From: Brucella cytisi
Lineage (GTDB): Bacteria; Pseudomonadota; Alphaproteobacteria; Rhizobiales; Rhizobiaceae
Length of the DNA stretch: 64,000 bases
Assembly: GCA_012103075.1 (NCBI GenBank)
Contig: JAAVLQ010000001.1
Coordinates: 2,159,001-2,223,000, forward strand
Direction of reading: 5' to 3'
Within the stretch, counting starts at the first letter, position 1. Every line of letters starts with the position of its first letter. The position numbers were made by a program, and so were the translations under genes. The notes under the pieces were generated by a model that saw only the letters and a list, made by a program, of their open reading frames with translations, did not search any database and was not told the DNA's origin. Shown one piece after another: positions 1 through 64,000 of the stretch.

Positions 1-911
1 GTTTTGGCATTCGGCGGGCTGGATGGTTTCGACCAGCCTGCCGATATGACGCCATGTGTCTTCGATGGTGCGCTTTTGTGCATTTCTCATCCAATGCTTG
101 ATCTTGGAAAAGGCTTGTTCGATCGGATTGAGGTCCGGCGAATAGGGTGGCAGGAACCAGAGCCGCGCGCCAGCGGCTTTGATCAATTGACGGATGGTTG
201 CCGACTTATGGCTGCCGAGATTGTCCATGACGACAATGTCGCCCGGCTTGAGCACCGGGACCAACTGCTGCTCGACATAGGCGCGGAAACACTGGCCGTT
301 CATCGGTCCGTCGAAGACACAGGGTGCTGTAAGCTGATCGTTTCTCAAAGCGCCCGGGAATGTCAGCGTGCGCCAGTGGCCATGCGGTGCAAATGCCCGC
401 AGTCGCTTGCCTTTTGGACCCCAGCCTCTGATCGGCGACATGTTGGTCTTGATCCGGGTCTCATCAATGAAGACCAGCCGTTCGGGATCAAGGTGATTTT
501 GCAGGGTCTTCCAGCGCTGTCTTTTGCGAGCGACGTCGGCACGAGCTTGCTCAAGGGCGAATAGTGTTTTTTTTTGAAGCGCAGCCCTTCACTGCGAATG
601 AATTCCCAGATCGTATTGTGCGAGACGGAAATACCCCGCTCGGTCAACGCCGCCTTCAGGCCATGGAGTGTCAGGTGTGGGTTCTCGGCGAGCCGTTGCA
701 CAATGATATCACGATGCGGTTCGAGTATCCGCTTGCGGTGGCCGCCCATCTTGCCGGGATGAACCGATCCGGTCGCACGATGGCGCTGGGACCATTTTAC
801 GACTGAAGATGCGGCAATTTCAAACCGCGTCGCCACTGAACGAACGCTTTCGCCACTCAGCACGGCGGCAATAACGCGCTCTCGAAGATCATTCGATATC
901 GGTGCGGTCAT
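1..911 (-). CDS. IS630-family transposase (partial, frame change at an A-run)
   Basis: DDE transposase that excises and inserts the element. The N-terminal part (from 911) is a winged helix-turn-helix of about 110 residues. A run of nine A (minus strand, 564-572) then ends the first frame, and the catalytic domain continues in another frame. There I read an Asp in VFIDET, an Asp in VMDNLGS and a Glu in LNPIEQ, the DDE triad. The C-terminus is cut by the window edge. IS630 elements often use slippage on an A-run to fuse two frames, so this may be programmed, but a miscounted A is equally possible. The residue after VFIDET is Arg (codon CGG at 454-458) where relatives have Trp, and TLTFPGAL has Pro where Leu is usual (354-358). 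Both fit CCTGG read as CCCGG. Confidence 0.85.
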
Positions 912-1004
912 CCAACGCTGGCCTCCATCCAGCCAGCATCAGTGAATCAGAACAAAACTGATTTGGGAAGCGCATTCGATTCAGAGAAAAACGGAAACGC
1001 TCTA
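1..1004 (-). mobile_element. IS630-family insertion sequence, left part missing
   Basis: The stretch carries one transposase gene on the minus strand and, beyond its start codon, a terminal segment ending near a CTAG at 1002-1005. IS630-family elements target TA, often inside CTAG, so that CTAG is a plausible end of the element. The other end lies outside the window, so the full length and the paired inverted repeat cannot be checked. The outer boundary is inferred and could lie nearer 960. Confidence 0.7.
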
Positions 1005-1005
1005 G
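971..1005. repeat. Rhizobiales-type short repeat at the IS edge
   Basis: Contains GAGCGTTTCCGTTTTTCTCT (minus strand), a sequence style I recognise as dispersed in Brucella-group genomes. It may be a chromosomal repeat into which the IS inserted, or the IS terminus itself. The window cannot decide. Confidence 0.45.
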
Positions 1006-1162
1006 CAGGTCAGACACCGACATCCCCAGACATACAAGGGCAAACAACTCATGAGCGCTGAGCCAACAGATCGAGCAAATCGGTCAGTCGCTCGACGCAA
1101 TGCATTTTGAAGCAATCTGCTTTCCATCACACGGAGAATGACGCAGGCGAACTCTTCTCAAT

Positions 1163-1198
1163 GGAGAAAAAAGCCCGGCTATAGCCGGGCCTTTTGAA
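1163..1198 (-). terminator. Rho-independent terminator of carD
   Basis: GGCCCGGCTATAGCCGGGC stem followed on the minus strand by a run of T. It lies just after the carD stop codon. Confidence 0.8.
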
Positions 1199-1218
1199 AG
1201 AAAGAGAAGTAAAGCTGC

Positions 1219-1797
1219 TTATGCCGCTTCAACTTCATCGTCATCGAGGTCCGCTTCAGCGTCGGCTTTGCCGCGCTTCGGTCCCTTGGCGAGATCGCTT
1301 CGATCAGACGAACAGCTTCGGTTTCCGAAAGCTTGTTCACGGCAGCGATTTCGCGCGCCATACGATCAAGGGCAGCTTCATAAAGCTGGCGTTCCGAATA
1401 AGACTGTTCCGGCTGGTTCTCAGCGCGGAAAAGATCGCGAACGACTTCCGAGATCGAGATCAGATCGCCGGAATTGATCTTTGCATCATATTCGGGCGCG
1501 GCGCGACCACATGGTACGCTTCACACGTGCGCGGCCCTGTACGACCTTGAGTGCACGTTCAACATAGTCGGTCTCCGACAGCTTGCGCATACCGATGGAA
1601 GCGGCTTTGGCAACCGGCACCTTCAGGCGCATCTTGTCTTTTTCGAAATCGATTACGAAAAGCTCGAGCTTGTGGCCTGCCACTTCCTGCTCTTCGATAG
1701 TGACGATCTGACCAACGCCATGAGCCGGATACACGATGGCCTCACCGGCCTTGAAACCGCCACGCGCTACTGGAGACTTTTTCTGCTGGGATGACAT
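1219..1797 (-). CDS. carD: CarD family transcriptional regulator (two sequence frameshifts)
   Basis: CarD/CdnL proteins bind RNA polymerase beta through an N-terminal Tudor-like domain and stabilise open promoter complexes. The frame starts MSSQQKK and shows the CarD signature around FKAGEAIVYPAHGVGQI, then the helical C-terminal domain (MWSRRA, SYSERQLYEAALDR, LSETEAVRLIEA) and an acidic end DLDDDEVEAA. The frame breaks near 1497, where RRAQEYD is expected (two bases missing from a CCAGG-type site), and near 1293 (AA read as A). Rejoined, the protein has about 190 residues, normal for the family. I chose ATG 1797; ATG 1806 lies only two bases after GGGAG. It is transcribed alone and ends in a strong terminator. 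Confidence 0.88.
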
Positions 1798-2368
1798 ACG
1801 CTTCATTACTCCCTGTTGTGCCCGGCGCGACCCGCCGGTTGACACATGATGTTCGACCGCGCTCCGGAGAAATGAAGCACGGAAGTTGTTTGTCGGCTTG
1901 GAACTGAAAACGTATCTGACGGCAAATCTAGCCGACCGGGTGTACGGTGAGGGGACGACGCCAAATCGCAATCATCTTCCCCGGTGCCATCAGCCCGGTA
2001 CTAAAGATCAGCCCTTTCAGAGATTAACGCATAGCGCCACGAATTGACGTCCAGTCACCGAAATTATTGGAGCAACCTAACACAATTTCGCGAAAGAATC
2101 AACAAATTGCCAAATATGTCGTATCTGGCAATGCAACACGCCTAAAATATGGGCGCTTTCCCGTGATTTCATTCGTCTTTTGCCGATGCATTGCAGAAAA
2201 AGCAAGTGATAAATCCTGCATTCCTGTAATGTCGGACAACCCGGCAGTCTTGCCGGGCTGAACCTACATGTTCCTGGAGCGCAAAGTCTTCCGGAACGAA
2301 GACATACTTACACAATACCGTCCAGCTCGCAACAGCCCGCAAGCAGTACCTGCAATGCTGGCCGGGTA
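1798..2368. other. Intergenic region between fdxA and carD
   Basis: No convincing gene. It should hold the carD promoter. A GC-rich inverted repeat, CCGGCAGTCTTGCCGG (2240-2255), lies downstream of fdxA but lacks a T-run. One of the very few intact CCTGG sites of the window is at 2273-2277. Confidence 0.5.
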
Positions 2369-2706
2369 TTAGTCACCGCTACGGGCTCGGCGGAGAAATA
2401 CTTCTCCAACTTGCCAGCCACGCCGTCCATTTCCTTGGCTTCCGGCAAGGCATCCTTCTTCGCGGTAATATTGGGCCATTTTGCCGCATATTCCGTATTC
2501 AATTCCAACCACTTGTCGAGGCCCGGCTCGGTGTCGGGGCTGATCGCCTCGGCAGGGCATTCCGGTTCACATACGCCACAGTCGATGCACTCGTCGGGAT
2601 TGATGACGAGCATGTTTTCGCCTTCGTAGAAGCAATCGACCGGACAGACCTCGACGCAGTCCGTATATTTGCAGCGAATGCAATTATCGGTCACGACATA
2701 CGTCAT
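2369..2706 (-). CDS. fdxA: 7Fe ferredoxin FdxA (one frameshift near the C-terminus)
   Basis: Small electron carrier with one 3Fe-4S and one 4Fe-4S cluster. The N-terminal half holds two cysteine motifs, [17 protein letters not shown] and [12 protein letters not shown], and the helical tail of the bacterial 112-residue FdxA family follows. In the raw frame the protein runs on for 20 extra residues after SAEP. Restoring one base near 2382-2386 gives SAEPGSGD and a TAA at 2369, the usual length. The site is another CC-GG context. It is monocistronic and starts at ATG 2706. Confidence 0.92.
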
Positions 2707-3059
2707 CGTCGAACTCCTGTTGCCGCCCGAATTCCAGAACAGGCGGCTTATCTATCCTACAGCTTTGCGCCGATACTCCGGCAAGCCGACAATCGGCTCG
2801 GGGCTTTGGAATATCTCGCCACGAAGTCACTGTGCACGGAAATGGTTGCGGGTCTCAGCCCATGCCCTTTTATGACAATGCGTGAGGTAACGATTTTATC
2901 CTGCCGTGACAAGGGTACAAACGCCGCAATGTCACGAAGTAACGCACATCTGAAACAGCATTTCGTTTGACGGCTTTTGCTTGGAAAACGCTTTCGCCAG
3001 AACGGTTTGATGCGCAATTTCCATCACCGCCGTAACGAGCCTGCGGCAACGCGTCCGTG
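2707..3059. other. Intergenic region upstream of fdxA
   Basis: 353 bases without a credible gene. It presumably carries the fdxA promoter and the end of the helicase/S4 transcript. I see no clear terminator or repeat. Confidence 0.4.
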
Positions 3060-3449
3060 TCAGCTTCCGCGTAAACGATCCGTCTCGCGACGTTCTTTCT
3101 TGGTCGGGCGCCCGGCTCCGCTTTCGCGCTGCGGCGCTACGGCCTCCGACGATATCGTAGAAGTGGATGCAGGTGGGGGCGTAAGATCTTCATAAAGCAG
3201 TTGGGCTTCGGGCGCCGGACCACGACGCTCTCCCGGAGCGAGTATCTTGTAAACGAGGATACGCCGGTCAAGCGTAATGGTCAGCACATCGCCAACCTTC
3301 ACCTGATGAGCCGCCTGCTCGATCTTGTCACGGTTGACCCGGACCTTACCGCCGACGGCGAGTTTCGCCGCCAGCGATCTTGATTTGACCACGCGCGCGA
3401 AGAACAGCCACTTGTCGATTCGCTGTCTTGCGCCCGTTTCTGCAATCAT
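3060..3449 (-). CDS. S4-domain RNA-binding protein (Hsp15-like)
   Basis: 129 residues. The N-terminal half is an S4 RNA-binding fold: QRIDKWLFFARVVKSRSLA, then VGGKVRVNRDKIEQAAHQVK and VGDVLTITL. Hsp15 (HslR) binds stalled 50S subunits carrying nascent chains in E. coli; the same job here is an inference. The tail is Lys/Arg-rich (GRPTKKERRETDR), typical of the alphaproteobacterial version. The start ATG at 3449 lies right behind the stop codon of the RNA helicase (3451-3453), so the two are almost certainly cotranscribed. Confidence 0.85.
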   Translation of the reverse strand: MIAETGARQRIDKWLFFARVVKSRSLAAKLAVGGKVRVNRDKIEQAAHQVKVGDVLTITLDRRILVYKILAPGERRGPAPEAQLLYEDLTPPPASTSTISSEAVAPQRESGAGRPTKKERRETDRLRGS

Positions 3450-3450
3450 C

Positions 3451-6400
3451 TTACTTCTTCATCTGCTCTTTCAGAGCAAGAAGCTTGGCGAAAGGCGAAT
3501 CGGGATCGATGCGTGCAGGACGTTCCTGCTCCACACGTTTACCGCCCTGATGACCGTGTTCACGCTTCGGCTGACGCTGATTGCCACCACGGAAGTCACC
3601 CTTGGAGCCTTCGCGCTTGCCTTCGCCGTCATGACGCTTTTGCTTGTCGAAGCGCTTGCCACCGCGATCATTACGCGCCTGCTGGTCTGCACCACCTTCA
3701 GATTTGCGTGCTTCACCGCCCTGATCACGGTTCTGATGACCGCGATTCTGGTTGCCGCGATTTTGACGCTGACGGTTCTGGTCCTGATTGCGGTTGCGGC
3801 CTTCGAAACGACCCTGACGCCACAGAAGAACAGGCTTTGGCTCTTCAGCCGCCGCTTCTGCGGTTTCGCCTGCCGGTGCGGCTTCTGCAGCCACAGGAGC
3901 TTCTTCTTCCGCTTTGGCTTTGGCTTCAGTTTCCGTCTCGGCGACAACAACCGGTGCTGGCACAGGTTCAGCCGCTGGCACAGCAGGTTTCTCAGCCTCT
4001 GCGACCGGCGAAGCGCCAATTTCCTTGACTGCAGCTTCAGCCGCGAAAGCATCCAGTTCTGCAAGCTTCGCCGTGACCGCAGCGGCTTCCATAGCCTCGT
4101 GACGATAGCCGAGGCTCTTCAGGATTTCTTCCATGTCGTCGGTCGTCGCACCGAGAATCGACATCATGGCAGGCGTGACGATGAAACGTCCGCCGTCATA
4201 AGCGCCATCCGGACGCACACCGGAACCCGGACGCCGGGCAAGCGCCGGGCGAATGAGATCGGCAAGACGTTCCAGAATATCGATGCGCACAGCGCGACGG
4301 CCCAGCACACGATAGCCTGCCAGACGGTAGAACATCGGATCGAAAGCCGGATCGACCACGACCGACGTGCGACCAGCGGCCAACACATTCACGACATCGC
4401 CATAACCGGCACGTTCGCGGCCATCATTTTTGAGCGCCCAGAGCAGCGTGATGAGGCCAGCCGGAGCGGGCTTCAGCAGCATGGGCATGAAGACGTGATA
4501 GGCACCGAAACGCACGCCGAGACGACGGAGCGCCGCACGCGAATCCTGATCGAGTCCGCGCACTTCCTCTGCCACATCGCGGCGCGGGAGAATGCCGAGA
4601 TTCTCGACAATCTGGAAAGCAAGACCGCGTGTCATGCCGGTCAGGGCATCAGCGGCAGCCAGATCGGTGAGCGGCTTCAGAATGGTTTCGATATGATGAG
4701 CGACGAAACGTTCAATACGCGCGGCAACCTTGTCACGCGCCGCTCCGGTAAGCTGTTCGTCGGCCGGGATCACCGCGCGCGGCTTCAGCAGGTCATCGCC
4801 CGCAACCAGCGTTGCGACCGTTGCACCAACCCAGCGCATAACGCCGTCCGAGCCCAGCGCGAAATCGCCATTCGGCGCGGCAGCAAAGCGCTCCGCGCGA
4901 CGTTCGAACTCGGCGGCCAGCGCCTTTTGTGCAGCCGACTTCACCGCCTTGGCATCCGGCCCCTCGGCCTGAACGTCAGCGGTAAAACGGAATCCTTCCA
5001 GTTGCCCGACATTGTGGCCTTCGACAATCACGTCTCCGGCCGGGCTGATTTCTGCTTCAAGCATGGCATTCTCTCTCAGGCGCCTCATAAGCACGCTTGT
5101 CCTGCGGTCTACAAAGCGTTTCGTCAACCTTTCATGCAGCGCGTCGGACAATCTGTCCTCAATTTCGCGCGTCTTTTCCTGCCAGTGTGTCGGATCGGCA
5201 AGCCATCCCGGCCTGTGCGACACAAAAGTCCAGGTTCGAATTTGCGCCACTCGATGCGACAGGGTGTCAATTTCCCCTCTGTGCTATCGGCGCGGCGCAC
5301 CTGTTCGCTCATATAATCTTCATCGACGCTCCCTCGGCGGACAAGATCCCGGTAGATGGTTGCAATGATATCGGCATGCTGCGCCGGCGCGATCTTGCGA
5401 TAATCGGGCAGCGCGCAGGCGTCCCACAAAAGCTCGATGCGTGCCGGTGTCTTGGCGAGCCGCACAATCTCTTCGTCTTTCGACAAATTTTCAAGCGCTT
5501 GTTGATCAACGGCAGGCAAAGCCTTGGCCAATCCTTCAATCGGTGCGGGCGTTTCCAGAGAATACCGCAGAGAATCGAGCGATGAAAAGTCGAAACGGGC
5601 CGTGCGCCACTGCAGAACTTTCACCGGATCGAAATTATGCGCTTCCACCCGTTCGACCAGTTCTTCGTCGAATGGATGCACCTGCCCGGTCACACCGAAT
5701 GTGCCGTCACGCAGATGACGTCCAGCGCGCCCGGCGATCTGCCCAACTTCGGCAGGCGTCAGATCGCGGAACTGATAACCGTCGAATTTGCGGTTCTGCG
5801 CAAAGGCGACATGGTCAACATCCAGATTGAGCCCCATGCCGATGGCATCGGTCGCCACCAGAAAATCGACGTCACCCGACTGGTAAAGCTCTACCTGCGC
5901 ATTGCGCGTGCGCGGACTGAGCGCGCCCATGACCACCGCAGCGCCACCGCGCTGGCGGCGGATCAGTTCAGCAATCGCATAAACCTCGTCGGCAGAAAAG
6001 GCGACAATGGCGGAACGGTTCGGCAGGCGGGTAATCTTCTTGGCCCCTGCATAGGCCAGATGCGACAGGCGCGGACGCGTTACCACATTGATGCCGCGCA
6101 AGAGCTTTTCCAAAATGCCGCGCATGGTCCCAGCGCCAAGCAGGAGCGTCTCCTGCCGTCCCCGCAAATGCAGGATGCGGTCGGTGAATATATGCCCGCG
6201 TTCCAGATCACCGGCGAGCTGCACTTCATCGATAGCCACAAAAGCCACATCAGTGCGGCGCGGCATGGCCTCGACCGTGCAGACGGAATAGCGCGCGCCG
6301 GGCGGCACGATCTTTTCCTCACCCGTGACCAGCGCGACATTGGCCGCCCCGACCCGTTCCACCACGCGGTTATAGACCTCGCGCGCCAGAAGGCGCAGCG

Positions 6401-6542
6401 GCAGGCCGATCATCCCGCTTCCATGCGACAGCATACGTTCGATAGCGAGATGCGTTTTGCCGGTATTGGTCGGCCCAAGCACCGCAGTCACATCGCGGCC
6501 ACTCAAGGTCAGCGGCAAATCATGGGCAGGGAGTTGGTTCAT
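3451..6542 (-). CDS. SUV3-like DEAD/DEAH RNA helicase with Gln/Asn/Arg-rich tail (one frameshift)
   Basis: Superfamily 2 RNA helicase of about 1030 residues. The N-terminal half shows Walker A GPTNTGKT, DEVQL in the DExx position, and motif VI QIAGRAGRHLRDG. The second half is helical, then low-complexity: Ala/Glu/Val-rich followed by a run dominated by Asn, Gln, Arg and Gly (about codons 840-960), a likely disordered RNA-binding tail. The two halves are split at 5274-5277, where GGGG should be GGGGG; correcting it joins RADSTEG to EIDTLSHRVAQIRTW. Start ATG 6542 (MNQLPAHDLPL) is preferred over 6566. Sharing a transcript with the S4 protein suggests a role in ribosome or RNA quality control, an inference. 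Confidence 0.85.
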
Positions 6543-6723
6543 GCCAATAATCGGATTCCGGTACAAGCGCCCGTTACGGGCTGGATGCTGGTTCTTGCGA
6601 TAGCACTATACGACCTGCACCGAAAGCGCTCCTGTTAAGTTTCAGTATGGACGAGTTGCCAACCTTTCGGCGACCGATCTGCAGCCGGTCAATAACTTGT
6701 CGATTAACGATTGGAACGACTCT

Positions 6724-6782
6724 GGAACGAATCAGCGACGAATCGCTGACTCAGAGAGCTTCGCCTTTTGTTCACGGCAACA
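6724..6782. repeat. Direct repeat copy 1 with internal palindrome
   Basis: Begins GGAACGAATCAGCGACGAAT and contains a perfect hairpin, TCAGCGA-CGAA-TCGCTGA. The same block recurs 282 bases further on. Confidence 0.7.
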
Positions 6783-7005
6783 TATAGTAAGCCTAACACA
6801 AAACCCCACAATATAATGAATCGGATGTTCCGCTTTTCCTCGTTCTCCCGACGCGGAACAACACCGCCGTTAACTTTTGGCAAAACCTGTCAACAGGCTG
6901 TTCCGATTACAATACAATTCTTCAGAAAATCTTAATGATTACTGATAGTTCGTTAATGCCAAAGCAGATGGAAACTCGATTTTCGTTAACCTTCAGGCCA
7001 AAGCC

Positions 7006-7064
7006 GGAACGAATCGGCGACGAATCGCTGATCTGCAAGGTTTCTCCGTTTGTTCTCACCACAT
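7006..7064. repeat. Direct repeat copy 2 with internal palindrome
   Basis: Begins GGAACGAATCGGCGACGAAT; the hairpin arms differ from copy 1 by one base. The similarity continues more weakly through TTTGTTC. Confidence 0.7.
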
Positions 7065-7257
7065 CTGGTAGTCCGTGATCGCAATGCGCCATAGAAAACC
7101 AGTATTAAACAGACTTTGAGCACCGTCTCATCGGTTTCGCGTTAACTTTCTGACAAGGCCACCATACCGACGCCAGCGATTTCAAGCGTCTCATTGCGGA
7201 AACAAAAGGCGGACGGAGTCAAATCTCCGTCCGCCTCTGTTCCCGTGAAGGAGAAGG

Positions 7258-8441
<1,184 letters not shown>

Positions 8442-8625
8442 TCTTTCCTCCTTGAAATGTTGCGCAACACAAAGACCAAAATTCCGGCCTTGGCAAGCTT
8501 TTGCCGTGTGCCCGCACCGTCTTCATGAAAAACGATAAAGTGTTTTTCCCATGACGAGCAGCATTGGAGTGTGCATTGCCGGTCATGATCGCTAAATTGC
8601 ATTTAGCTATAAATAGGAGATATTC

Positions 8626-9057
8626 ATGACTTCACTGACGCTCGAACAAGCCAATGGGATTATTGCTGGTGCCTTTGCCAAGGCAGCCGAGCTGAAACTG
8701 AAGCCGCTGGCTGTCTCCGTCTTTGACGCAGGCGGAAATCTGAAAGCGTTTCAGCGGCAGGACGGAACTTCGATCCTTCGTTTCGAGATCGCCTCGGGCA
8801 AGGCTTTCGGTGCACTTGCCGTCGGAACGGGCTCGCGCTGGCTGCACAATCAGGCCAAGGACCGTCCCCACTTTCTTGAAGGCCTATCGGGCGTGTCGGG
8901 CGGCAAGGTCGTGCCGGTGCCGGGCGGCGTTCTGATCAAGGATGCAGGCGGCGAAATCCTCGGTGCCGTCGGCATTTCCGGTGACACATCAGACAATGAC
9001 GAAATTGCAGCCATTGCCGGTATCGAAGGCGTAGGCTTTGCATCAGACGCAGGCTGA
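8626..9057 (+). CDS. GlcG/HbpS-like (DUF336) protein
   Basis: 143 residues of the GlcG/HbpS fold: LTLEQANGIIAGAFAKA, then AVSVFDAGGNLKAFQRQDG, and the C-terminal KVVPVPGGVLIKDAGGEILG-type Gly-rich loop with AVGISG. Family members include a haem-binding sensor component (HbpS) and the orphan GlcG of glycolate loci. The true substrate is unknown. ATG 8626 follows AGGAG. It is divergent from the thiolase and ends in a hairpin terminator. Confidence 0.8.
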   Translation: MTSLTLEQANGIIAGAFAKAAELKLKPLAVSVFDAGGNLKAFQRQDGTSILRFEIASGKAFGALAVGTGSRWLHNQAKDRPHFLEGLSGVSGGKVVPVPGGVLIKDAGGEILGAVGISGDTSDNDEIAAIAGIEGVGFASDAG

Positions 9058-9077
9058 TTTTCAGCAAAAACTCGCGA

Positions 9078-9106
9078 TCAAGGCCGCTTTATGCGGCCTT
9101 TTTCAT
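9078..9106 (+). terminator. Terminator after the GlcG-like gene
   Basis: AAGGCCGCTTTATGCGGCCT stem followed by TTTTT. Confidence 0.8.
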
Positions 9107-9133
9107 GCAGCTTGCAGAGAAGACCGCACAAAA

Positions 9134-9172
9134 GAAAACGCCGCTTCCGGAAACCGGAAACGGCGTTTTTGA
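9134..9172 (-). terminator. Terminator of rpmF
   Basis: AACGCCGTTTCCGG paired with CCGGAAGCGGCGTT, then T-run on the minus strand, directly after the L32 stop. Confidence 0.75.
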
Positions 9173-9205
9173 AAACCATCATTCGGCTGCAATGCAGCGT
9201 CAGAT

Positions 9206-9385
9206 TTATTCCTTAGCTTCGAGGACCTGACGGCCGCGATACATACCGCTCTTCAGATCGATATGATGCGGACGACGAAGTTCGCCCGAGTTCTTGTCCT
9301 CGACATAGGTCGGGGCCTTGAGAGCGTCAGCCGAACGGCGCATGCCACGCTTCGACGGAGACGTTTTTCGTTTTGGTACTGCCAT
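9206..9385 (-). CDS. rpmF: 50S ribosomal protein L32
   Basis: 59-residue ribosomal protein. It begins [18 protein letters not shown], the invariant L32 start, and continues [20 protein letters not shown] to a VLEAKE end. As in other alphaproteobacteria it lacks the zinc-binding cysteines. mtgA lies upstream on the same strand, the usual neighbour in this group. Confidence 0.95.
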
Positions 9386-9533
9386 GGATCCAGCTCCACT
9401 GATCGGTCAATAAACGTCCGGCACGGCCCCGAAGAGCCTGTCACATCGGACAAAATTCCGGAAAGTCACGTGCCTATACACGCTCTAACGGCATTTGACC
9501 AGCAGGAGTCTTATCTTTTTTCGTATCATGCAT

Positions 9534-10295
9534 TTATTGCACGCAAACCACATAGGGACCTGACCGTGCGGCGCGTCCGGCGACGATGCGGGCAATGCGC
9601 TGCATGTTGCGCGTCGGCTTGGCGGGGTTGCGCAAGGCCGGATTTGGCAGCGTGACGGCAAGCAGTGCGGATTGCTGCGCATTGAGTTTTGCTGCCGGGC
9701 GCTTGAAATGATGCTGGGCTGCGGCCTCGATTCCGTAAATGCCCGGTCCCCACTCGGCGATATTGAGATAGATTTCCATAATGCGCTTTTTGGACAGAAT
9801 ACCGTCGGCAGCCAGCGCCAGCGGAAATTCGAGCCCCTTGCGGACATAGGAGCGCCCATTCCACAGGAAGAGGTTCTTCACGGTCTGCATCGTGATCGTG
9901 GAAGCGCCGCGGCTCGGACCGCCCTCGCCCGTATCGTCCAGAACCAGCCCCAGCTGATGCCAGTCCACCCCGCCATGGCTGCAGAACTGGCCGTCCTCGG
10001 CCATCATTACCGAATTGACGAGAACCGGCGCGATATCGTCGATACTGACCCATCTACGGTCTACGCCCTGAAACAGAACATAGTCCTTGACCATCAGGGT
10101 CGAGATCGGGCGGACAAAGGGTACGGAATAGACGAAAAGCAGGAAAATCGGCAGCACGCCCAGAATCACCAGAATCTTGAGCGCGAGAGCAATCCGGGCA
10201 CCCCAAACGGGATCCGCCAGATAATTGCGTCCATCTTTTGCTCTTGATGATGATTTTTGCCACTGCCACCGCCTGCTACCTTCCCCAAGCGACAT
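9534..10295 (-). CDS. mtgA: Monofunctional biosynthetic peptidoglycan transglycosylase
   Basis: Polymerises lipid II into glycan strands at the inner membrane. About 253 residues: a cytoplasmic N-terminus, one membrane helix ([20 protein letters not shown]), then the GT51 domain with the catalytic Glu in [29 protein letters not shown], and a second conserved Glu in [15 protein letters not shown]. No transpeptidase domain follows, which marks it as monofunctional. ATG 10295 is chosen because the family motif order starts shortly afterwards; the upstream open frame has no family similarity. Confidence 0.92.
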
Positions 10296-10446
10296 AAACC
10301 ATTCCTTAATAAGTTTGAACCGGATTCCATAATCCAACCGGGGAAACAAGTCGAAACACGCCGTTTCATGACGTTCAAATGAAAAAGCCTGTGCTGATCG
10401 TTGTGGCCAGTTGACCAAATCAGCGCTTTCGTCCATCCCCTTTGAC

Positions 10447-11416: not shown

Positions 11417-11422
11417 AACGAT

Positions 11423-11976: not shown

Positions 11977-13223
11977 ATGCAACCTTCAACCGGCGCGGCA
12001 GAAACGCGGTCCGCGAACCCTGATGCACGCCATTTGCTTTCCTCGACGACCCTTTTTCTGTTTGCGGCTGCAAGCGGACTGGCGGTAGCCAATGTCTACG
12101 TTGCTCACCCGCTGCTCGATGTGATGGCTGACGACCTCGGTCTCAAGCGATCAACAGCAGGACTCATCGTCGCCGCCAGCCAGCTCGGTTATGCAATCGG
12201 CCTGATTTTTCTCGTCCCGCTCGGTGATCTGTTCAACCGGCGCAAACTCATCATCACGCATTTCCTTCTGTCGGTCCTGTCCCTGATCTCAATTGGCTTT
12301 GCGGCCAATGCCACCGTGCTTCTGATCGCCATGGCCACTATGGGCCTGCTCGCCGTAGTCACACAGGCACTTGTCGCCTATGCGGCCAGCCTCGCAGCAC
12401 CGGCGCGACGCGGTCATGTGGTTGGCATCGTAACCAGCGGCATCGTGCTCGGCATATTGCTGGCACGCGCAATAGCAGGCGCCCTCACCGACATTGGTGG
12501 CTGGCGCAGCGTCTACTTCGTTTCCGCTATTCTCACGCTTTTGATCGCGCTCCTGCTGTGGCGCTGCCTCCCCGACCAGAAACGCCAGCCGACCGGCGTC
12601 AGCTACCCGACACTCATTCTGTCGCTTGTGACGCTATTTCGCTCCGAGCCGGTACTGCGCATTCGCGCCATCATAGCCATGCTGATCTTCGCCAATATTA
12701 CTACTTTGCTCGCGCCACTGGTCATGCCGCTCAGCGCACCACCCTTCGAACTGAGCCATGCGGAGATCGGTCTGTTCGGACTGGCAGGTGCTGCCGGAGC
12801 GCTTGCCGCATCGCGTGCTGGCGGTGTTGCCGACCGGGGTTATGCCCAGCGGATGACAGGCATCGCTTTGCTGCTGATGTTCGTGTCATGGGGTCTGATA
12901 GCCTTGCTGGAACATTCACTGCTCTGGCTAATCGCAGGTGTGCTGATTATCGACTTCGGCCTTCAGGCTGTCCACGTCACCAATCAGGCGATGATCTACC
13001 GTGTACGCCCAGACGCGCAGAACAGGCTCACCGCCGCCTATATGGTTTTCTATTCCATCGGCAGCGCAAGCGGTTCGGCGGTTTCAACCTGGGTCTATGC
13101 TTATGCAGGCTGGAATGGCGTTTGCCTGCTTGGCGCAGGCATCAGCCTTGTCACGCTCATCTTCTGGGCAGCAACATTAAAGGCTACTCCAGAGACCGCT
13201 ACGCGCCCGGTCACCTGTACCGC

Positions 13224-52560: not shown

Positions 52561-52572
52561 ATCCCAAGCCTA

Positions 52573-52782: not shown

Positions 52783-52915
52783 CGGTCACAATCCCGTTCT
52801 CGGTTTTACTTCGAACATTGAAGCAAAGCCTGTTCATACCCATCATATAGGCAGAAAGGCTTACCGTGCAAAACCCTTGCGGGTCATGTAACCTAAGATT
52901 TGGAGACCGCCGCGG

Positions 52916-53881: not shown

Positions 53882-53887
53882 ATAAAG

Positions 53888-55307
53888 TTGAACAGTGTGA
53901 ACGATAAAAAGCCCGCGCCAAAGCGTGGAAATAAAAAGCCGCAAACGAATAACAGCGCCGCAGACCTGCGCCCCGGTCTGGCGGCGCGTTTGTGTGCTGC
54001 ACGCCTTCTCGGTGCGGTGATCGAAAAGAACACCTCGCTCGACGGCCTGACCGACAATACGCACGGCCATCCGCAATATCTGGCGCTGGAGCCGCGCGAC
54101 CGCGCGCTGGTTCGCGCCATTCTCGGCTCTGCGCTCCGCAATCGCGGCAGCATCGAACGCGCCATCAACAAGCGGCTCGACCGGCCATTGCCGGAAAAAT
54201 GCCCTAGCGTTGAAACATCTTCTGCATGTCGCCATCGCCCAGATTTTCTATCTGAACCTGCCCGATCATTCGGCGGTCGATCTTGCGGTGGAAGCGGCGA
54301 ACAATGATCCGCGCAATCGCAAATATGCTGGTCTCGTCAATGCGCTGCTGCGTCGACTTTCGCGTAACAAGGAACGTGCTCTCGCCCACACGCTTGAGCC
54401 CGAAACCAACGTGCCGGAGTGGTTTGCCAAAAGCATCACCGACGCCTATGGCGCGGAAAAAGCAGCAGCCATTCTTGCCATGCATGCCTATGAGCCGCCG
54501 ATCGATTTCACCGTCAAGGGTGACGCAAAGGCATGGGCCGAAAAGCTCGGTGGTGTCGCGCTGCCCAACGGTTCGGTGCGCCTGCAAACGGTCGAAGGCA
54601 ATCTTACCGACCTGCCCGGCTTTGCCGAGGGGGACTGGTGGGTGCAGGATGTGGCCGCGAGCCTGCCTGCACGCCTGATGGGTGATATCAAGGGCAAACG
54701 GGTTGCCGACCTGTGCGCTGCCCCCGGCGGCAAGACGGCGCAGCTCATACTTCAGGGCGCCGACGTGACCGCGCTCGACCTTTCCGAAAACCGGCTGAAG
54801 CGCCTGCGCGGCAATCTGGAACGTCTCGGTTTCGAGGCGAAGACCGTTGCCACCAATCTGATGGATTTCCAGCCGGAGGAACTGTTCGACGCCGTGCTTC
54901 TGGATGCGCCCTGCTCTTCCACCGGCACTGTGCGCCGTCATCCAGACGTGCCTTGGACCAAGACGCCGCAGGACATAGCAAAGCTTGCCGAACTTCAGGG
55001 CAAACTTTTGGCGCACACGGCTACTCTGGTCAAACCCGGCGGCGTAATCGTCTTTTCCAATTGTTCGCTGCACCCGCTCGAAGGCGAGGAAATGGCGCGC
55101 AAGGCAGCGGAAAATCTGTTGCTGGAACCTTTCCCGATCACGGAGCAGGATTTCCCCAGTCTGAACGGGCTTCTGGAAGGACTGGTCACAGCAGAAGGCT
55201 TTCTGCGATCCACCCCGGCAGACCTGCCGCCGGATCGTTTTGAAGGCAATCCGCACATGGCTGGCATGGACGGTTTCTTCGCGGCCCGCTTCAAGCGCCG
55301 GGCCTGA
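53888..55307 (+). CDS. rsmB: 16S rRNA m5C methyltransferase RsmB-like (one frameshift)
   Basis: Methylates C967 of 16S rRNA in E. coli. N-terminal NusB-like domain (AARLCAARLLGAVIEKNTSLDGL, LVRAILGSALRNRGSIERAI), then the SAM-binding domain: DLCAAPGGKTAQL, LLDAPCSSTGTVRRHPD, and SNCSLHPLEGEE; both PCS and NCS cysteines are present. One extra T near 54200 breaks the frame; corrected it reads LPEKALALKHLLHVAIAQIF. Rejoined length about 472. TTG 53888 or GTG 53897 starts it. Cotranscribed with htpX. Confidence 0.9.
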
Positions 55308-55438
55308 GACCGGATATAAGCAAACAAATCGTATAATTTGCCATAACGGGTCGCGATACCCGTTATGGTTAACGCTCGATTCACCATTTCTGTACAATTG
55401 TATCAAAGGAACTGGCTGTTCGATCTGGCCAAACAATA

Positions 55439-57179
55439 ATGACAAACGATACGGAGAAAGACCGGGTGGCAGTCGCCCTCAGCGAAACCCCACATCTTTG
55501 GGGATTGGCCGTTGCACAGGCTTGGCGCAAGTTCAGCCGCCGTCTGCGCATGGGGCCGCTTTATCGCTGGCGCTTCACCGGCTTCACCCCGGATCGTATC
55601 CTGATCGCTCCGCCCGACCTGCGCGTTGCCGACGCGCAATTGGCACAGGAATTCTATCACGGCCGTTTTGCGCTGGCCGGTCGTCTGGTCGAAACCGGCG
55701 GATTGTCGCCTTTCGCCGTCGAACCGCCGACGCCGGAATGGGAAGCAGCGCTTCAGAGTTTCGGCTGGCTCCGTCATCTGAAAAGTGCCAATAGCGAACT
55801 GGCAACCGCTAATGCGCGCGCGCTCGTCGATGACTGGATGCGCATGTTCGGCAAGCGGATCGGCGGCATCGCCCGGTCACCGGAAGTCACTGCCCAACGC
55901 ATCATCGCCCGGCTTCAGCATTCAAACCTTATTCTGTCAGGCGCCGAACTTCCCGCCTATCGCCGCTTCATGCGCTCGCTCGCCATGCAGGTGCGTTATC
56001 TGCGCACCGTTGCCGCCGCCATGGATGATGGCGAGGAACGGTTGCGCGCCCGTATCGCGTTGGCATTCGCCGCTCTGGCTCTGCCTGTTTCGCCACCGAC
56101 GGCACGCGCCGCCCGGCGCAATCTGGAGTACGAGCTGAAACGCCAGATTCTGCCCGATGGCGGACATATCTCGCGCAATCCCGTTACAGTTCTGGAACTG
56201 CTGGCCGATCTTCTGCCGCTCCGCCAGACCTATGCCAATGGCACGGAAGCCCCGCCCAAGGCGCTGATCGAAGCCGTCGAGCGCATGTTGCCGGCCCTGC
56301 GCTTCTTCCGCCATCAGGATGGCAGCCTTGCGCTTTTCAACGGCGTCGGCCCGACCATGCCGGAACGCATCATCTCGGTTCTCAGGCATGACGAGACCGC
56401 TGGATCGCCGCTGACCCATGCGCCCTATTCCGGCTATGAACGGCTTTCGATGGGTTCGACCACCATCATCGCCGATACCGGACTGCCGCCGCCGGTCACA
56501 GCTTCGCGGGATGCCCATGCCGGTTGTCTCGCCTTCGAAATGTCCTCCGGGCGCCAGCGCTATATCGTCAATTCCGGTATTGACCGTTTCGGTCCGCCGG
56601 AATTTCGTCCATTAGGTCGTTCCACGGCTGCGCACTCCACGGCCACCATCAACGACACCTCATCGTGCCGCTTCAGCCTCAATGCGGGTCTCTCCAACAT
56701 GATCGGCACGCCGATCATTGCAGGCCCGACCCGCGTGCAGCGTGACCGGATCGAGGAAATGGGGCGGCAGGGGCTTTGTTGCCAGCCATGACGGCTATGC
56801 GCGCCTGTTCGGCATCTATCACGAACGTCGCCTTGTGCTGTCGCACAATGGCAGCGTCATTCAGGGGCAGACCGCTTCTATCGCGGCGATGGCCGCCCGT
56901 TGAAGGCGAACGGACGCGACAATATCGCGGTGCGTTTCCATCTGCATCCGTCGGTCGATATTTCCTTCGATGAGAACGGATTGATCGTTCTGTCGGCGGA
57001 TCGCGACGATACCGGTCTTCTCCTGTTTTGAAGTTGCGCCGCAACTGGAAGATTCGATCTTCTTTGCGGGCTTCCGCGGCCCCGTGACATCGAAGCAGAT
57101 CGTGCTCTCCTTCCCGGCATCAGAATTGCCGGAAGTGAACTGGCAGTTCAGCCGCGTCGCACTCGGCAGTTACGTATAA
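55439..57179 (+). CDS. Heparinase II/III-family protein (three frameshifts)
   Basis: About 579 residues. Alpha-helical N-terminal toroid (RMGPLYRWRFTGFTPDRILI, LVDDWMRMFGKRIGG, LRYLRTVAAAMDDG-like) and a C-terminal beta-sheet domain (GYERLSMGSTTIIADTG, SRDAHAGCLAFEMSSG, NSGIDRFGPPEF). Frame errors: extra G near 56770-56773 (RQGFVASHDGYARLFG), a missing base near 56870 (GQDRFYRGDGRPLKANGRDN), extra T near 57026-57029 (LLLFEVAPQLEDSI). The corrected end is ALGSYV with TAA at 57177-57179. The substrate in Rhizobiales is unknown, though often associated with rsmB and purH, as here. Confidence 0.82.
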
Positions 57180-57384
57180 TCCGCTCTCAACCCCTCACCA
57201 CGGGGAGGCGCGGCAGCGCCGTCTCGAAGGGTCGAGGGTCAACGGGACCGAATGCGGGGCAAGAAATACCTCTTCACCGTTCTTTTCCGGCCTTTTGCGG
57301 TAGGATTCTCGGCGCGCCTGTGTTAGGGCGAGCCGTCCACTTTCCTGAACGCATCCGTTTCAGCAACGAAGAGACCAACTCCCT
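57180..57384. other. Intergenic region with a GC-rich repeat
   Basis: GAGGCGCGGCAGCGCCGTCT and TCGAAGGGTCGAGGG (57207-57239) resemble the dispersed repeat at 17.7 kb. The rest holds the purH promoter. Confidence 0.5.
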
Positions 57385-59000
<1,616 letters not shown>

Positions 59001-59001
<1 letters not shown>

Positions 59002-59058
59002 AGCTTTTACGCATTATCCTGCGCAAAACCGCTCCGCACTTTTGCTGGAAATGCTCTA
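59001..59058. repeat. Rhizobiales-type short repeat
   Basis: TTTTACGCATTATCCTGCGC and AAAACCGCTCCGCACTTTTG, same family as the copies at 21.5 and 44.6 kb. Confidence 0.7.
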
Positions 59059-59078
59059 CCCCCTTATAACAAGTATTT

Positions 59079-59118
59079 ATTGAGGCCCCGGAACCAACCA
59101 TTCCGGGGCCTCGTTTTC
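59079..59118 (+). terminator. Terminator of purH
   Basis: GAGGCCCCGGAA-CCAACCA-TTCCGGGGCCTC followed by GTTTTC. Confidence 0.85.
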
Positions 59119-59186
59119 ATTGAGTTTCACATTGTTTCGTTTAAATTCGCTTTCAACATCGACCGGATCAACGGAGGAGCCCGCCC

Positions 59187-60683
59187 ATGACGCAGTTTAT
59201 CGGTTCCATCGACCGGGGAACCACGAGTTCGCGTTTCATCATTTTCGACAAGCGGGGCGATATCGTCGCGAGTGACCAGCGCGAACATGAGCAGATTTAT
59301 CCGAAGGCGGGCTGGGTCGAACACAATCCGATAGAAATCTGGCGCAACACACAGCACGTCATTGCCGCAGCACTCAAAAAGCAAAACTGAAGGCAAGTGA
59401 TATCGCTTCCGTCGGCATCACCAACCAGCGCGAAACCACACTGCTCTGGGACAGGAAAACCGGTGCGCCGCTCTATAATGCAATCATCTGGATGGATACG
59501 CGCACCGACGAACTTGTTTCCCGGTACACGAAGGACGTCGGCGCAGACCAGCTTCGTGCCAAGACCGGCCTGCCGATCTCGACCTATTTCTCCGGGCTCA
59601 AGCTGCGCTGGATACTCGACAATGTTCCGGGTGCGCGTGAAAAGGCCGAAGCCGGAGACGCACTTTTCGGCACAATCGACACATGGCTGGTCTGGAACCT
59701 GACTGGCGGCACCGATGGCGGCATCCACATCACCGATTTGACCAATGCTTCCCGCACCCAGCTGATGGATCTTTCGACGCTGCAATGGGATGAAGACATA
59801 CTTCGTCTTTTCGATATTCCGTCAGCCTGCTTGCCGGAAATCCGCTCTTCAAGCGAGGTCTATGGCGAGATCACCCTGCCCTCCCTTTCCGGTGTAAAAC
59901 TTGCGGGCATTCTGGGCGACCAGCAGGCAGCGCTCTTCGGTCAGGCATGTCTGGAACCGGGCGAAGCCAAGAACACCTATGGCACGGGCTGCTTCATGCT
60001 GATGAACACCGGCGAGAAATTGGTGCCCCTCAATTACGGCCTGCTGACCACGGTTGCCTACAAGCTCGACGGTGCCAAACCGGTTTATGCACTGGAAGGC
60101 TCCATCGCCATTACCGGCGCCCGGTGCAATGGCTGCGCGACAACCTCGGCATCATCAAGAACAGCAGCGACATCGAAACACTGGCGCGCACCGTGGAGGA
60201 CAATGGCGACGTCTATTTTGTTCCAGCCTTTTCCGGCCTCTTTGCACCGCATTGGCAGGATTCAGCGCGCGGTATCATTGCTGGCCTCACCCGCTTCGCC
60301 AACAAGGGGCACATTGCCCGGGCGGCCCGGAAGCGAGCGCCTATCAGGTGCGCGAAGTGCTTGATGCGATGGTGAAGGATTCAGGCGTCGAAATCACCGA
60401 GTTGCGCGCCGATGGCGGCATGACCATCAATGAACTGCTCATGCAGTTCCAGTCCGACATTCTGGATGTGCCGGTTGTGCGCCCGAAAATCATAGAGACG
60501 ACGGCACTGGGCGCTGCCTACGCGGCGGGGCTCGCCGTCGGCTACTGGAAATCGACGAAGGACATTGTGGAGAACTGGCAGGTGGGCCATCGCTGGCATC
60601 CGCGAATGTCGGCTGAGGAAAGCACGCGCCTGTTCAATGCGTGGGAAAAGGCCGTGCAGCGTTCGCTAGGCTGGATTGAATAG
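59187..60683 (+). CDS. glpK: Glycerol kinase (three frameshifts)
   Basis: Phosphorylates glycerol to sn-glycerol 3-phosphate. About 498 residues. FGGY motifs: [67 protein letters not shown]. Frames break near 59380 ([13 protein letters not shown]), near 60119-60124 ([15 protein letters not shown]) and near 60325-60330 ([15 protein letters not shown]). The last two need CCCTGG where CCCGG is read, so CCTGG lost its T twice in one gene. GGAGGAG precedes the ATG. No glpF or glpD is adjacent. Confidence 0.93.
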
Positions 60684-60701
60684 AAGTCTCGCCCCGGCCC
60701 G

Positions 60702-62098
60702 TCACGACGGGCTGGTTGCAGCCAGCTTGTCAGCCGGATAAGGCGTCACTGCAATCAGCACCAGACCGACCGCAAAAGAATATGACCAGCACCGACATGC
60801 CCAGCGCCGCCGATCCGCTCAGCGCCGTGATGGTGGCAACCAGAAACGGTCCAAGGAAGCTGGTCGCGCGCCCGGCGAGCGCATAGATGCCGAAATAGCG
60901 GCCCGATTCCTCCGGCTTGATGCTGCGGGCAAACCATGAACGCGACGAGGCCTGAACCGGACCGAAGGCCGCACCAATCATCAGACCGCAAATCAGATAG
61001 GCGTGTTCTGCCGCGCTGGAGAACAGTCCTTGTGTTGTGGGAGATGCGAAAGGCATCAGGCCGAACAAAGTGTAATCGCGTCCGGTCGAGACAATGCCTA
61101 TAGAAGCAAGCAGCAACAGCACCAGCGAAAAGATCACGACAGCCTTGGAACCAATCCGTGTATCGACGCGGCTTGCGACCAGACAACTGAAAATCGCCAT
61201 GACATTCATCACCATGCCGAAAAGCCCGATCTCGGTGATCGTCCAGCTGAACAAGGCTGCCGCATAACCCGCACCGAGCGCCAGCGTAGCATTGACGCCA
61301 TCCTGATAAATCATGCGCGCCACAAGGAAGCGGACAAGTCCCGACCGTTTGCGCGCCTCGGTGAGCGTAACCTTCAATTCTGCAAAGCCAGAGCGCAACG
61401 CCTTGCGCAGAGGCTCGCCACGTTCCGCGTCCGGCGTGAACAAAAACATTGGCAGGATGAAAACGAAATACCACAGGGCAGCCAGCGGTCCGGTAATGCG
61501 CGCATCCTCCCCAGTACGGGATCGAGACCGAACAGGGGCTTCATGCCGATGATCGTTGTGCCTGTTTCAGGCGAGGCCGCCAGACATAGCACCACGAAAA
61601 TGAGTACGATCATGCCGCCCAGATAGCCGAGCCCCCGGGCGATGTTGGAGACACGCCCGATATCGTTGCTCGGCACCAGACGCGGCATCATGGAATCATT
61701 GAAGACGATGGAAAATTCGGCAGCCACCATGGCCATAGAAAACGCACACAGTACCCAGAACAGGTTCGCACCCGGAACGGCGAACCACAGCAGGCAGAGG
61801 CCTATAATCTTCAGCACGGCGAAGAAAGCGATCCGGGGCTTACGCGCGCCTGTCCGGTCGGCCACCGCTCCCGGGATCGGTGAAAGCACAGCAATGAGAA
61901 AACCGGCAGCGGCAAAGCCATAACCCCAAGCAACCCGGCCGGCTTCAGGATTTTCTGCCATGCGCGAGATGAAATAAGGCCCGAAGATGAACGTGGTCAC
62001 AACGGTAAAAAGGGCTGCGCCGCCCAGTCAAAAAATATCCAGCCCCAGATGCCACGCCGCGAGGCATAGCTGCGGGCAGCCGCAACCTGATCGCTCAA
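60702..62098 (-). CDS. MFS transporter, UMF1/Atg22-like (three frameshifts)
   Basis: About 465 residues. IWGWIFFDWAAQPFFTVVTTFIFGPYF at the N-terminus, GAVADRTGARKPRI in the first loop, VFNDSMMPRLVPSNDIGRVSNIARGLGYLGG in the middle: the UMF1/Atg22 pattern of amino-acid exporters. Frame errors: TTTTT for TTTTTT near 62007-62011, GGGG for GGGGG near 61509-61512 (VLGEDARITGPLAALWYF), extra T near 60774-60777 (corrected end ADKLAATSPS). TTG 62098 (LSDQVAAARSYASRR) follows GGAAGGAAAGAG. Convergent with glpK. Confidence 0.82.
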
Positions 62099-62213
62099 TT
62101 GCTCTTTCCTTCCCCGGGCAAGAAGTTGGCCCAACCATTGACCGGCCAGTCGGTCGGAAGCCTCTCCTTTATCAGCCGCACCTTATAACCCGAAACTCGG
62201 CTTCAAAAGAAAC

Positions 62214-62242
62214 AAAAAGGGCGACCGAAGCCGCCCTTTTGC
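62214..62242 (-). terminator. Terminator of the NAD-GDH gene
   Basis: AAAAGGGCGG-CTTCGGT-CGCCCTTTTTG on the minus strand, 20 bases past the stop. Confidence 0.85.
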
Positions 62243-62261
62243 AAGTTTATGTCGTTGTTTT

Positions 62262-64000
62262 CTATTGCGCCAGATCGGACATCAGGCCCGCTGCAACCGC
62301 CAGTCGCGAGACCGTCAGGTCACCACCTTCCGTCAGCGCCACCATGCGGTTCTTCACCTGCTCGATGCGCGCGCCATCGGCTGCAAACCGGGCTGCTGCC
62401 GGGTCCTTATCCTTGGCAAAACGCTTGAGCGCCGCAATGGTGATACCGCGTGCGGCCTGCGTGATCGTATCGCTTGCTCGTGACAGAGCAAGCCCGTCAT
62501 AATAGTCCGTGACGGGGATGGAGCGCGCGGCTTCCTCGATGCGTCCGATGCGGAAGGCTTCCGAAACACCGAAATAGGTCTTGGCGGTTACCACCCGGTC
62601 GGCATCGGCCAGATGCGCGATCAGCGCGATGTCCGGCATGATGCCTGCAAGCTGCAGATTGGCAAGACGCTGGGCCAGCTTTTCCGGTGCACCCTTTTCC
62701 ACGAAAGCAGCCTTGTCGGCCTGCAGCGTGCTCTTCAGGTATTCCGGCATCAGACCGTCGAAACGCGGTTCCAGCTCGGCACGTGCCCCGGTGATCGTGT
62801 CCACCAGTTCCGTCAGATTGGCGCGTGTCGTATCGTTGCGCAGCACCCAAGCCGTCGTCGCCTGCAACATTTCGCCGACGAGATGATAGAACTGGTTCTG
62901 CACATCGCCCGGCACCTTGCTGTCGAGTGCATCAATGGCATCATAGATCGTGTCGATATCGAAGCCGTCACGCACCGCCACATAGGCGCGGACGATATCG
63001 GCAGGCGACTTGCCGGTCGTACGGCCAGACGGCTGATGAAGGTGATACCGCCGCGGTTGATGACATCGTTTGCCAGCAAAGTAGCGACGATTTCACGGCG
63101 CAAACGATGGCCGGAGATTTCCTCGGCATAAGTCTTGGTCATGCGCTTCGGGAAATAGCCGAACAGCAGCGACTGAAAGTAAGGCTCATCCGGAAGCTGG
63201 CTTGCCACCAGATCATCCGAAAGCGACAGCTTGGCATAAGCAAGCAGAACCGCCAGTTCCGGACGCGTCAGCGGCTGACCCGCTTTCTGGCGTTCGGCCA
63301 GAAGCGCATCGGATGGCAGATACTCGACCTTGCGATCAAGAAGCTTGCGATTTTCGAGTTCCGCCATGAACCGCGCCTGATAAGGCAGCTCTGCCAGACC
63401 CTGCCTTTCGCTGAGCGAAAGCGCCAGCGGCTGCAGATAGTTGTTGCGCAGAACCAGTTCGGACACACCATCGGTCATGCTGACCAGAAGCTTGTTGCGT
63501 GCCGGGCGCTTGAGATTGCCCGAACGCATGGCGGCGGCCAGAGCGATCTTGATGTTGACCTCGACGTCCGAGCAGTTGACGCCTGCCGAATTGTCGATGG
63601 CGTCCGTATTACCGCGACCGCCTGCCAGCGCATATTCGATACGCCCGCGCTGCGTTACGCCAAGATTTGCACCTTCGCCGATCACCCGCGCACCAACTTC
63701 CGCGCCAATGATGCGGATCGCATCATTGGCGCGGTCACCTACCTGCGCATCCGTTTCGGCAGACGAGCGGATATAGGTGCCGATACCGCCGAACCAGAGG
63801 AGATCGACCTTCGATTTCAAAATCGCAGTCATGATTTCCTGCGGCGTGCCGGAGGTCTTTCCAAGGCCGATGGCTGCAGCAGCCTCCGGCGAGAGCGTGA
63901 TCGTCTTCTGGCTGCGGCTATAGATGCCGCCACCAGCCGAAAGCTTGGAACGGTCATAATCCTGCCAGCTCGAACGCGGCAGTTCAAACAGACGCTTGCG
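62262..64000 (-). CDS. gdhB: Large NAD-specific glutamate dehydrogenase, C-terminal part (one frameshift)
   Basis: Oxidises glutamate to 2-oxoglutarate; the family has about 1600 residues. Only the C-terminal part is in the window. LSAGGGIYSRSQKTI, VDLLWFGGIGTYIRSSAETD, IGAEVGARVIGEGANLGVTQRGRIEYALAGGRGNTDAIDNSAGVNCSDVEVNIK is unmistakable. The frame breaks near 63015-63020, where SRLAVRTGKSPADIVRAY is expected (one A short). Ends LMSDLAQ. The gene runs off the right edge. Confidence 0.93.

What the first reader, a model, noticed from the sequence alone, without database searches (positions are those of the whole stretch)
1..64000. CCWGG sites have been almost erased from the window, with damage left where they should be
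Reading all 64 kb on paper I found only three intact CCWGG sites (2273, 5230, 13088). At this GC content one to two hundred are expected. Conserved proteins show where the missing ones were: at about 14 places the family demands CCAGG or CCTGG and the sequence carries a 1-2 base deletion (e.g. 20276 pyc, 60325 glpK, 27224 livM). At others the centre base is now G or C, giving Trp or Gln to Arg. Natural avoidance would not damage invariant residues. A base-calling artefact at methylated CCWGG (Dcm/EcoRII-type 5mC) explains all of it and implies an active CCWGG methyltransferase in this strain, which is not something I associate with Brucella.
Basis: partly seen in the sequence, partly recalled or inferred. 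Interest (0 to 1): 0.92.

Follow-up and report, generated by a model that had tools for sequence, protein, structure and literature searches.

The report
Methylation-caused sequencing errors at CCWGG
The near-absence of the DNA word CCWGG here is most likely a long-read sequencing error caused by chemical tagging of those sites, and the genome carries two restriction-modification gene sets of the kind that places such tags.

Summary
The window holds 3 CCWGG and 221 CCSGG. Own-genome stretches totalling 556 kb hold 36 CCWGG where relatives' density predicts 648. Among 5-mers with an expectation of at least 20, only CCWGG collapses: ratio to relatives 0.04, next lowest 0.75. A fair expectation for the window is about 57-75 sites, because the genus itself under-uses CCWGG.

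Sites present in relatives are lost mostly by change of the centre base (A>G, T>C), less often by 1-2 base deletions. The changes ignore protein constraint: 20 of 28 coding centre changes are nonsynonymous, against 3 of 36 between relatives. That fits a base-calling artefact at methylated sites, a published nanopore problem (PMC6591954, passages).

The predicted enzyme exists: contig C3 carries two EcoRII-type gene sets (C5 methyltransferase, Vsr, EcoRII-C nuclease) and a nuclease remnant. Sampled relatives with the methyltransferase keep CCWGG, as does a second poor assembly without it.

Corrections: most length differences are not at CCWGG; the glpK example is not a CCWGG site in five relatives. 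Artefact of a known kind; low interest.

The parts
1..64000 (.). whole window: CCWGG nearly absent (3 sites), CCSGG in mild excess (221)
2273..2277 (.). residual intact CCWGG (CCTGG)
5230..5234 (.). residual intact CCWGG (CCAGG)
13088..13092 (.). residual intact CCWGG (CCTGG)

Best explanation
The missing CCWGG sites are a consensus base-calling artefact of native-DNA long-read (most likely nanopore) sequencing. The strain methylates CCWGG with EcoRII/Dcm-type C5 methyltransferases encoded twice on its third contig. 5-methylcytosine shifts the signal over the motif; a base-caller not trained on it systematically reads the centre A as G or T as C, or drops one or two bases; because the reads err alike, the consensus inherits it genome-wide. 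Shown: motif-specific loss, its pattern, its disregard of protein constraint, and the presence of the genes. Inferred: methyltransferase activity and specificity, sequencing platform, signal-level mechanism.
For: Only CCWGG collapses among the 5-mers tested (ratio 0.04 in the window, 0.06 in 556 kb; next lowest 0.75 and 0.70). Seventeen sites with identical CCWGG in all four near relatives: 1 kept, 11 centre-only changes (7 A>G, 3 T>C, 1 T>G), 2 shorter, 3 other; relatives held out in turn keep 22 of 26, 22 of 30 and 22 of 25 (Fisher P 4e-9). Nonsynonymous share of centre changes against G008 20 of 28 (16 of 21 against G009, 11 of 17 against G011), but 3 of 36 in five relative-to-relative comparisons. 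On the island of gene set B, 93.8 and 94.7% identical to two plasmids, CCWGG is kept at 0 of 21 and 0 of 28, but 18 of 22 and 18 of 25 between the plasmids at 94.1%. Two methyltransferase-Vsr-EcoRII-C sets on contig C3. The methyltransferase is found in 5 of 35 genus genomes at E <= 1e-20; sampled stretches of the other four hold 0.75-2.6 CCWGG per kb. G005, a poorer assembly (69% complete), has no such match and keeps 95 CCWGG per 80 kb. Default nanopore models err mainly at CCAGG/CCTGG in a Dcm-methylated Klebsiella genome (PMC6591954, passages); ambiguities linked to methylation are chiefly A/G and T/C and 84% lean to G or C (PMC11610573, passages).
Against: No raw reads, platform record or methylome could be examined. 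Both methyltransferase genes are interrupted in the deposited sequence, which the artefact would predict but which could also be real breakage. Most length differences in the window are not at CCWGG. At 12 of the 43 best supported sites the change is neither centre-only nor a length change. The relative-to-relative controls share genomes and are not independent, and the contrast with G005 is one assembly on each side.
Confidence: 0.95

Rival explanations
1. Real evolutionary avoidance: resident EcoRII-type nucleases have purged CCWGG from the genome.
For: EcoRII-type genes are present and four ordinary relatives pooled use CCWGG at 0.40 of Markov expectation.
Against: Sampled stretches of the four other genus genomes with the methyltransferase keep CCWGG; centre changes here are mostly nonsynonymous, with 11 Trp>Arg against G008, while those between relatives are nearly all synonymous; an island 93.8-94.7% identical to plasmids has kept 0 of 21 and 0 of 28 sites.
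Confidence: 0.02
2. Base-calling artefact at CCWGG that does not depend on methylation.
For: The assembly is poor overall (completeness 85.8%, contamination 6.4%) and has more indels in runs of five or more than two better relatives (18 of 101, against 4 of 54 and 7 of 98).
Against: The other poor genus assembly (G005, 69% complete) has no match to the methyltransferase and keeps CCWGG; the similar words CCWGC, GCWGG and CCSGG are not lost. This is a contrast of two assemblies only, and their platforms are unknown.
Confidence: 0.03
3. A true mutational process aimed at methylated CCWGG.
For: The loss is specific to the motif.
Against: Deamination of 5mC (established knowledge) would alter the second C or the fourth base, not the centre, and would not delete bases; the dominant recognisable change is at the centre and it hits coding positions without regard to the residue.
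Confidence: 0.005

Closest known systems
Dcm-motif consensus errors in nanopore assemblies (PMC6591954, Genome Biol 2019; passages seen)
   Same: Errors concentrated in CCAGG/CCTGG, ascribed to 5mC missing from base-caller training; remaining errors mostly homopolymer length.
   Different: Described there in Klebsiella; here a genome related to rhizobial groups with EcoRII-type gene sets, and about 94% of expected sites gone. That study saw about 70% of errors in Dcm motifs; here CCWGG is a minority of length differences.
Methylation-linked A/G and T/C ambiguities (PMC11610573, Genome Res 2024; passages seen) and modification-mediated errors in Listeria (PMC10687267, Commun Biol 2023; passages seen)
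   Same: Strain-specific, motif-specific errors; in the first paper substitutions leaning to G or C.
   Different: Other motifs (RACG/CGTY; GCAGC and GCTGG).
Nanopore assemblies of highly pathogenic bacteria including three Brucella species (PMC12392509, BMC Genomics 2025; passages seen)
   Same: Methylation motifs linked to assembly errors.
   Different: Reports GANTC in two Brucella species; the word CCWGG does not occur in its text.
EcoRII-type restriction-modification systems with Vsr
   Same: C5 methyltransferase, Vsr and EcoRII-C nuclease side by side; 46 of 56 named methyltransferase loci carry all three, 53 of 56 have Vsr; a Neorhizobium petrolearium plasmid has them annotated as dcm, very short patch repair endonuclease and type II restriction endonuclease.
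   Different: Two diverged sets (pieces 28-66% identical) plus a nuclease remnant in one genome; frames interrupted in the deposit.

Membership tests
Nanopore Dcm-type base-calling artefact | errors at CCWGG, not at similar words | tested here: met
Nanopore Dcm-type base-calling artefact | substitutions ignore coding constraint | tested here: met
   20 of 28 nonsynonymous against 3 of 36 in controls
Nanopore Dcm-type base-calling artefact | a CCWGG methyltransferase in the genome | tested here: met
   genes of the right family present; target specificity inferred, not measured
Nanopore Dcm-type base-calling artefact | sequenced as native DNA on a nanopore without short-read polishing | not testable with these tools
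   no read data or assembly record available
EcoRII-type restriction-modification system | EcoRII-C nuclease domain (PF09019) | tested here: met
   8.6e-67 for set B; 4.9e-22 and 1.1e-42 for two pieces of set A
EcoRII-type restriction-modification system | Dcm-like C5 methyltransferase | tested here: met
   set B: PF00145 3.7e-61; TIGR00675 dcm 234 bits, over its cut-off of 100.65; NF007772 354 bits, under its full-length cut-off of 710; best solved chain 3lx6 306 bits, best HhaI chain 130. Set A: pieces at 3.7e-12 and 1.6e-22
EcoRII-type restriction-modification system | CCWGG specificity and enzyme activity | tested here: inconclusive
   the footprint matches CCWGG and spares CCSGG; no activity measured
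EcoRII-type restriction-modification system | uninterrupted genes | tested here: inconclusive
   interrupted in the deposited sequence, expected if the artefact is real; uninterrupted relatives exist

The most novel reading that the evidence does not exclude
The consensus sequence alone works as a methylome readout: almost every CCWGG on all three contigs is methylated, and the rare surviving sites, 13 of 36 of which lie in the first 40 kb of contig C3 (six in its first 3.3 kb), mark DNA that escapes methylation rather than chance or low coverage.
Probability: 0.05. Interest if true: 0.4.

Novelty: already known. Interest (0 to 1): 0.22.

Why it matters
Assemblies like this one carry false Trp>Arg changes, some false frameshifts and false motif 'avoidance' that can mislead annotation, typing and quality scores (this assembly scores 85.8% complete). 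A collapsed palindrome in a single assembly is a cheap flag both for unpolished native long-read data and for an active methyltransferase. It also shows that EcoRII-type genes occur in this genus (methyltransferase match in 5 of 35 genomes; EcoRII-C match in 10 of 35).

Tried and rejected
Natural avoidance, a methylation-independent artefact and true mutation were considered and rejected as above. A second miscalled motif was sought by ranking 4- to 6-mers against relatives: in the window, among 6-mers with an expectation of at least 15, the lowest that does not contain CCWGG is at 0.44 (7 seen, 16 expected), which I take as chance. At positions conserved in four relatives, CCWGG is the 5-mer most enriched for private differences (8 of 38 positions) but makes up only 8 of 239 private differences. 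A Pfam scan of one window ORF gave nothing. The flanks of the 36 surviving sites showed me no rule by eye. Paper searches: Ochrobactrum/EcoRII/CCWGG, any two terms (15 of 31 papers listed, none of those 15 with Ochrobactrum), Brucella with Dcm and 5-methylcytosine (one listed, titles and abstract starts only) and Ochrobactrum with nanopore, frameshift and methylation (none). I saw nothing on this case in those listings.

Weak controls: the private-indel row for G009 used the window as one of its two supports, so it is not a clean control. Indel counts mix true divergence, errors in either genome and choice of reading frames (85 in 52 kb towards the window; 63 in 67 kb and 96 in 65 kb between better relatives; 167 in 64 kb towards G005); I did not separate these, so I do not say what causes the window's other indels.
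Full report
The count is right. The window has three CCWGG sites, at 2273, 5230 and 13088, against 221 CCSGG; composition predicts 185 CCWGG and a maximal-order Markov model 147. The better yardstick is related genomes. Over the corresponding region, four relatives at 88.5-91.8% identity have 87, 93, 95 and 98 CCWGG per 80 kb and a fifth, at 81.0%, has 71. Relatives themselves under-use CCWGG, at 0.40 of Markov expectation when four are pooled, so about 57-75 sites are expected here. Three is still out of reach of chance (Poisson P 3e-28 at 74.6, 7e-21 at 56.8). The loss is spread over the genome: 36 sites in 556 kb sampled from all three contigs, against 648 at relatives' density. No other 5-mer with an expectation of at least 20 behaves like this: in the window the ratio to relatives is 0.04 for CCWGG and 0.75 for the next lowest.

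CCWGG of relatives is kept in the window at 2 of 64, 1 of 71, 2 of 75, 2 of 75 and 1 of 49 (G008, G005, G009, G011, G007), while in six comparisons relatives keep one another's at 33-45 of 83-98; similar words such as CCSGG or CCWGC survive at ordinary rates. At 17 sites identical in all four near relatives the window keeps one; 11 have only the centre base changed (7 A>G, 3 T>C, 1 T>G), 2 are shorter and 3 differ otherwise. When a relative is held out in turn, 22 of 26, 22 of 30 and 22 of 25 sites are kept (these need three supporting genomes, not four). Over all 191 places with CCWGG in at least one of five relatives, the majority fate is 119 other substitutions, 51 centre-only changes, 19 length changes and 2 kept; over the 43 places seen in three or more relatives it is 12, 22, 7 and 2. 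That the 119 are largely ordinary divergence at weakly supported sites is my inference.

The changes do not look like evolution. Against G008, 28 coding CCWGG sites show a centre-only change and 20 of these are nonsynonymous (11 Trp>Arg, 4 Leu>Pro, 3 Gln>Arg, 1 Gln>Pro, 1 Arg>Gly); against G009 it is 16 of 21 and against G011 11 of 17; in five relative-to-relative comparisons 3 of 36 are (these share genomes and are not independent). On an island 93.8 and 94.7% identical to plasmids of Neorhizobium petrolearium and Agrobacterium pusense, the window's genome keeps 0 of 21 and 0 of 28 CCWGG sites, though the two plasmids, 94.1% identical, keep 18 of 22 and 18 of 25 of each other's.

The predicted methyltransferase is there. 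Contig C3 (1.24 Mb) carries two gene sets with methyltransferase, Vsr and EcoRII-C nuclease in that order on the minus strand, near 134.2-137.2 kb and 800.2-803.1 kb, and a third EcoRII-C stretch near 774.7 kb beside frames that look transposase-like to me by eye (no family search). The two sets are diverged (28-66% identity between pieces). Set A matches G002 and G031 at 86-97%; set B matches Mesorhizobium soli, Neorhizobium and two Rhizobium loci at 78-99%; of 56 named methyltransferase loci, 46 have all three genes and 53 have Vsr (some loci end at contig ends). The best solved chains are 3lx6 and 3me5, listed as cytosine-specific methyltransferases (306 and 305 bits), well ahead of HhaI at 130. 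The genes are interrupted in the deposited sequence; I searched the pieces apart and mended nothing.

Two contrasts tie the loss to methylation plus sequencing method. First, the methyltransferase matches 5 of 35 genus genomes at E <= 1e-20; stretches of the other four (G002, G022, G025, G031), all rated 99% complete, hold 0.75-2.6 CCWGG per kb, so having the system does not empty a genome. Second, G005 is an even less complete assembly (69%) with many private indels (196 that are not multiples of three, in 71 kb) but has no such match, and keeps 95 CCWGG per 80 kb. One genome on each side is a thin contrast, but it points the expected way. Default nanopore base-callers are reported to err mainly in CCAGG/CCTGG of a Dcm-methylated Klebsiella genome (PMC6591954, passages), and ambiguities linked to methylation are mostly A/G and T/C, 84% leaning to G or C (PMC11610573, passages), which matches the A>G and T>C seen here. 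A nanopore study that included three Brucella species names GANTC, and the word CCWGG is absent from its text (PMC12392509, passages).

CCWGG does not account for all damage. Against G008, 85 coding indel events are seen and 7 lie within 5 bases of a CCWGG (9 of 98 for G009, 2 of 78 for G011). That is a real excess, since comparisons among G008, G009 and G011 give 0 of 63, 0 of 50 and 0 of 96, and towards G005 2 of 167 and 3 of 157, but it is a minority. The rest mixes true divergence and other errors, which I did not separate; long runs contribute (18 of 101 private frameshifting indels have a run of five or more nearby, against 4 of 54 in G009, 7 of 98 in G011 and 47 of 196 in G005). Of the three named examples, pyc 20276 and livM 27224 are supported by 1 and 2 of 5 relatives; glpK 60325 is a length difference from all five but not at a CCWGG in any. 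The expected number was about twice too high. EcoRII-type methyltransferase genes are not foreign to this genus.

Verdict: a documented kind of artefact, here with its likely cause identifiable in the same genome. Probability 0.95 for a methylation-caused base-calling artefact; about 0.9 that the EcoRII-type enzymes are the cause (inference from presence, family and match of motif). The platform, enzyme activity and species remain unverified.

Noticed in passing
L044-L051 and L056-L063 (G007, G008, G009, G011): CCWGG is under-used in ordinary assemblies of the genus (0.40 of Markov expectation pooled), perhaps an imprint of past EcoRII-type systems.
   Followed up: partly
L040 and L095 (G000:C3:1-40000): 13 of the 36 surviving CCWGG sites of 556 kb lie here, six in the first 3.3 kb of the contig; low coverage or different read support near a contig end is the simplest guess.
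   Followed up: partly
[not shown]
   Followed up: partly
L081 (G000:C3:766000-784000), about 8671-9144: A third EcoRII-C stretch, 93-98% identical to set A pieces, with no match to the methyltransferase or Vsr pieces in that locus: apparently a remnant.
   Followed up: partly
G005 (L052-L055): Another genus assembly of low quality (69% complete, 196 private frameshifting indels in 71 kb) with CCWGG kept; 47 of those indels have a run of five or more nearby.
   Followed up: partly
G005, G009, G024, G026, G039, G042: EcoRII-C matches that cover only the second part of the profile (from about position 69, 75 or 95 to 165) and no methyltransferase match, possibly a different nuclease family.
   Followed up: no
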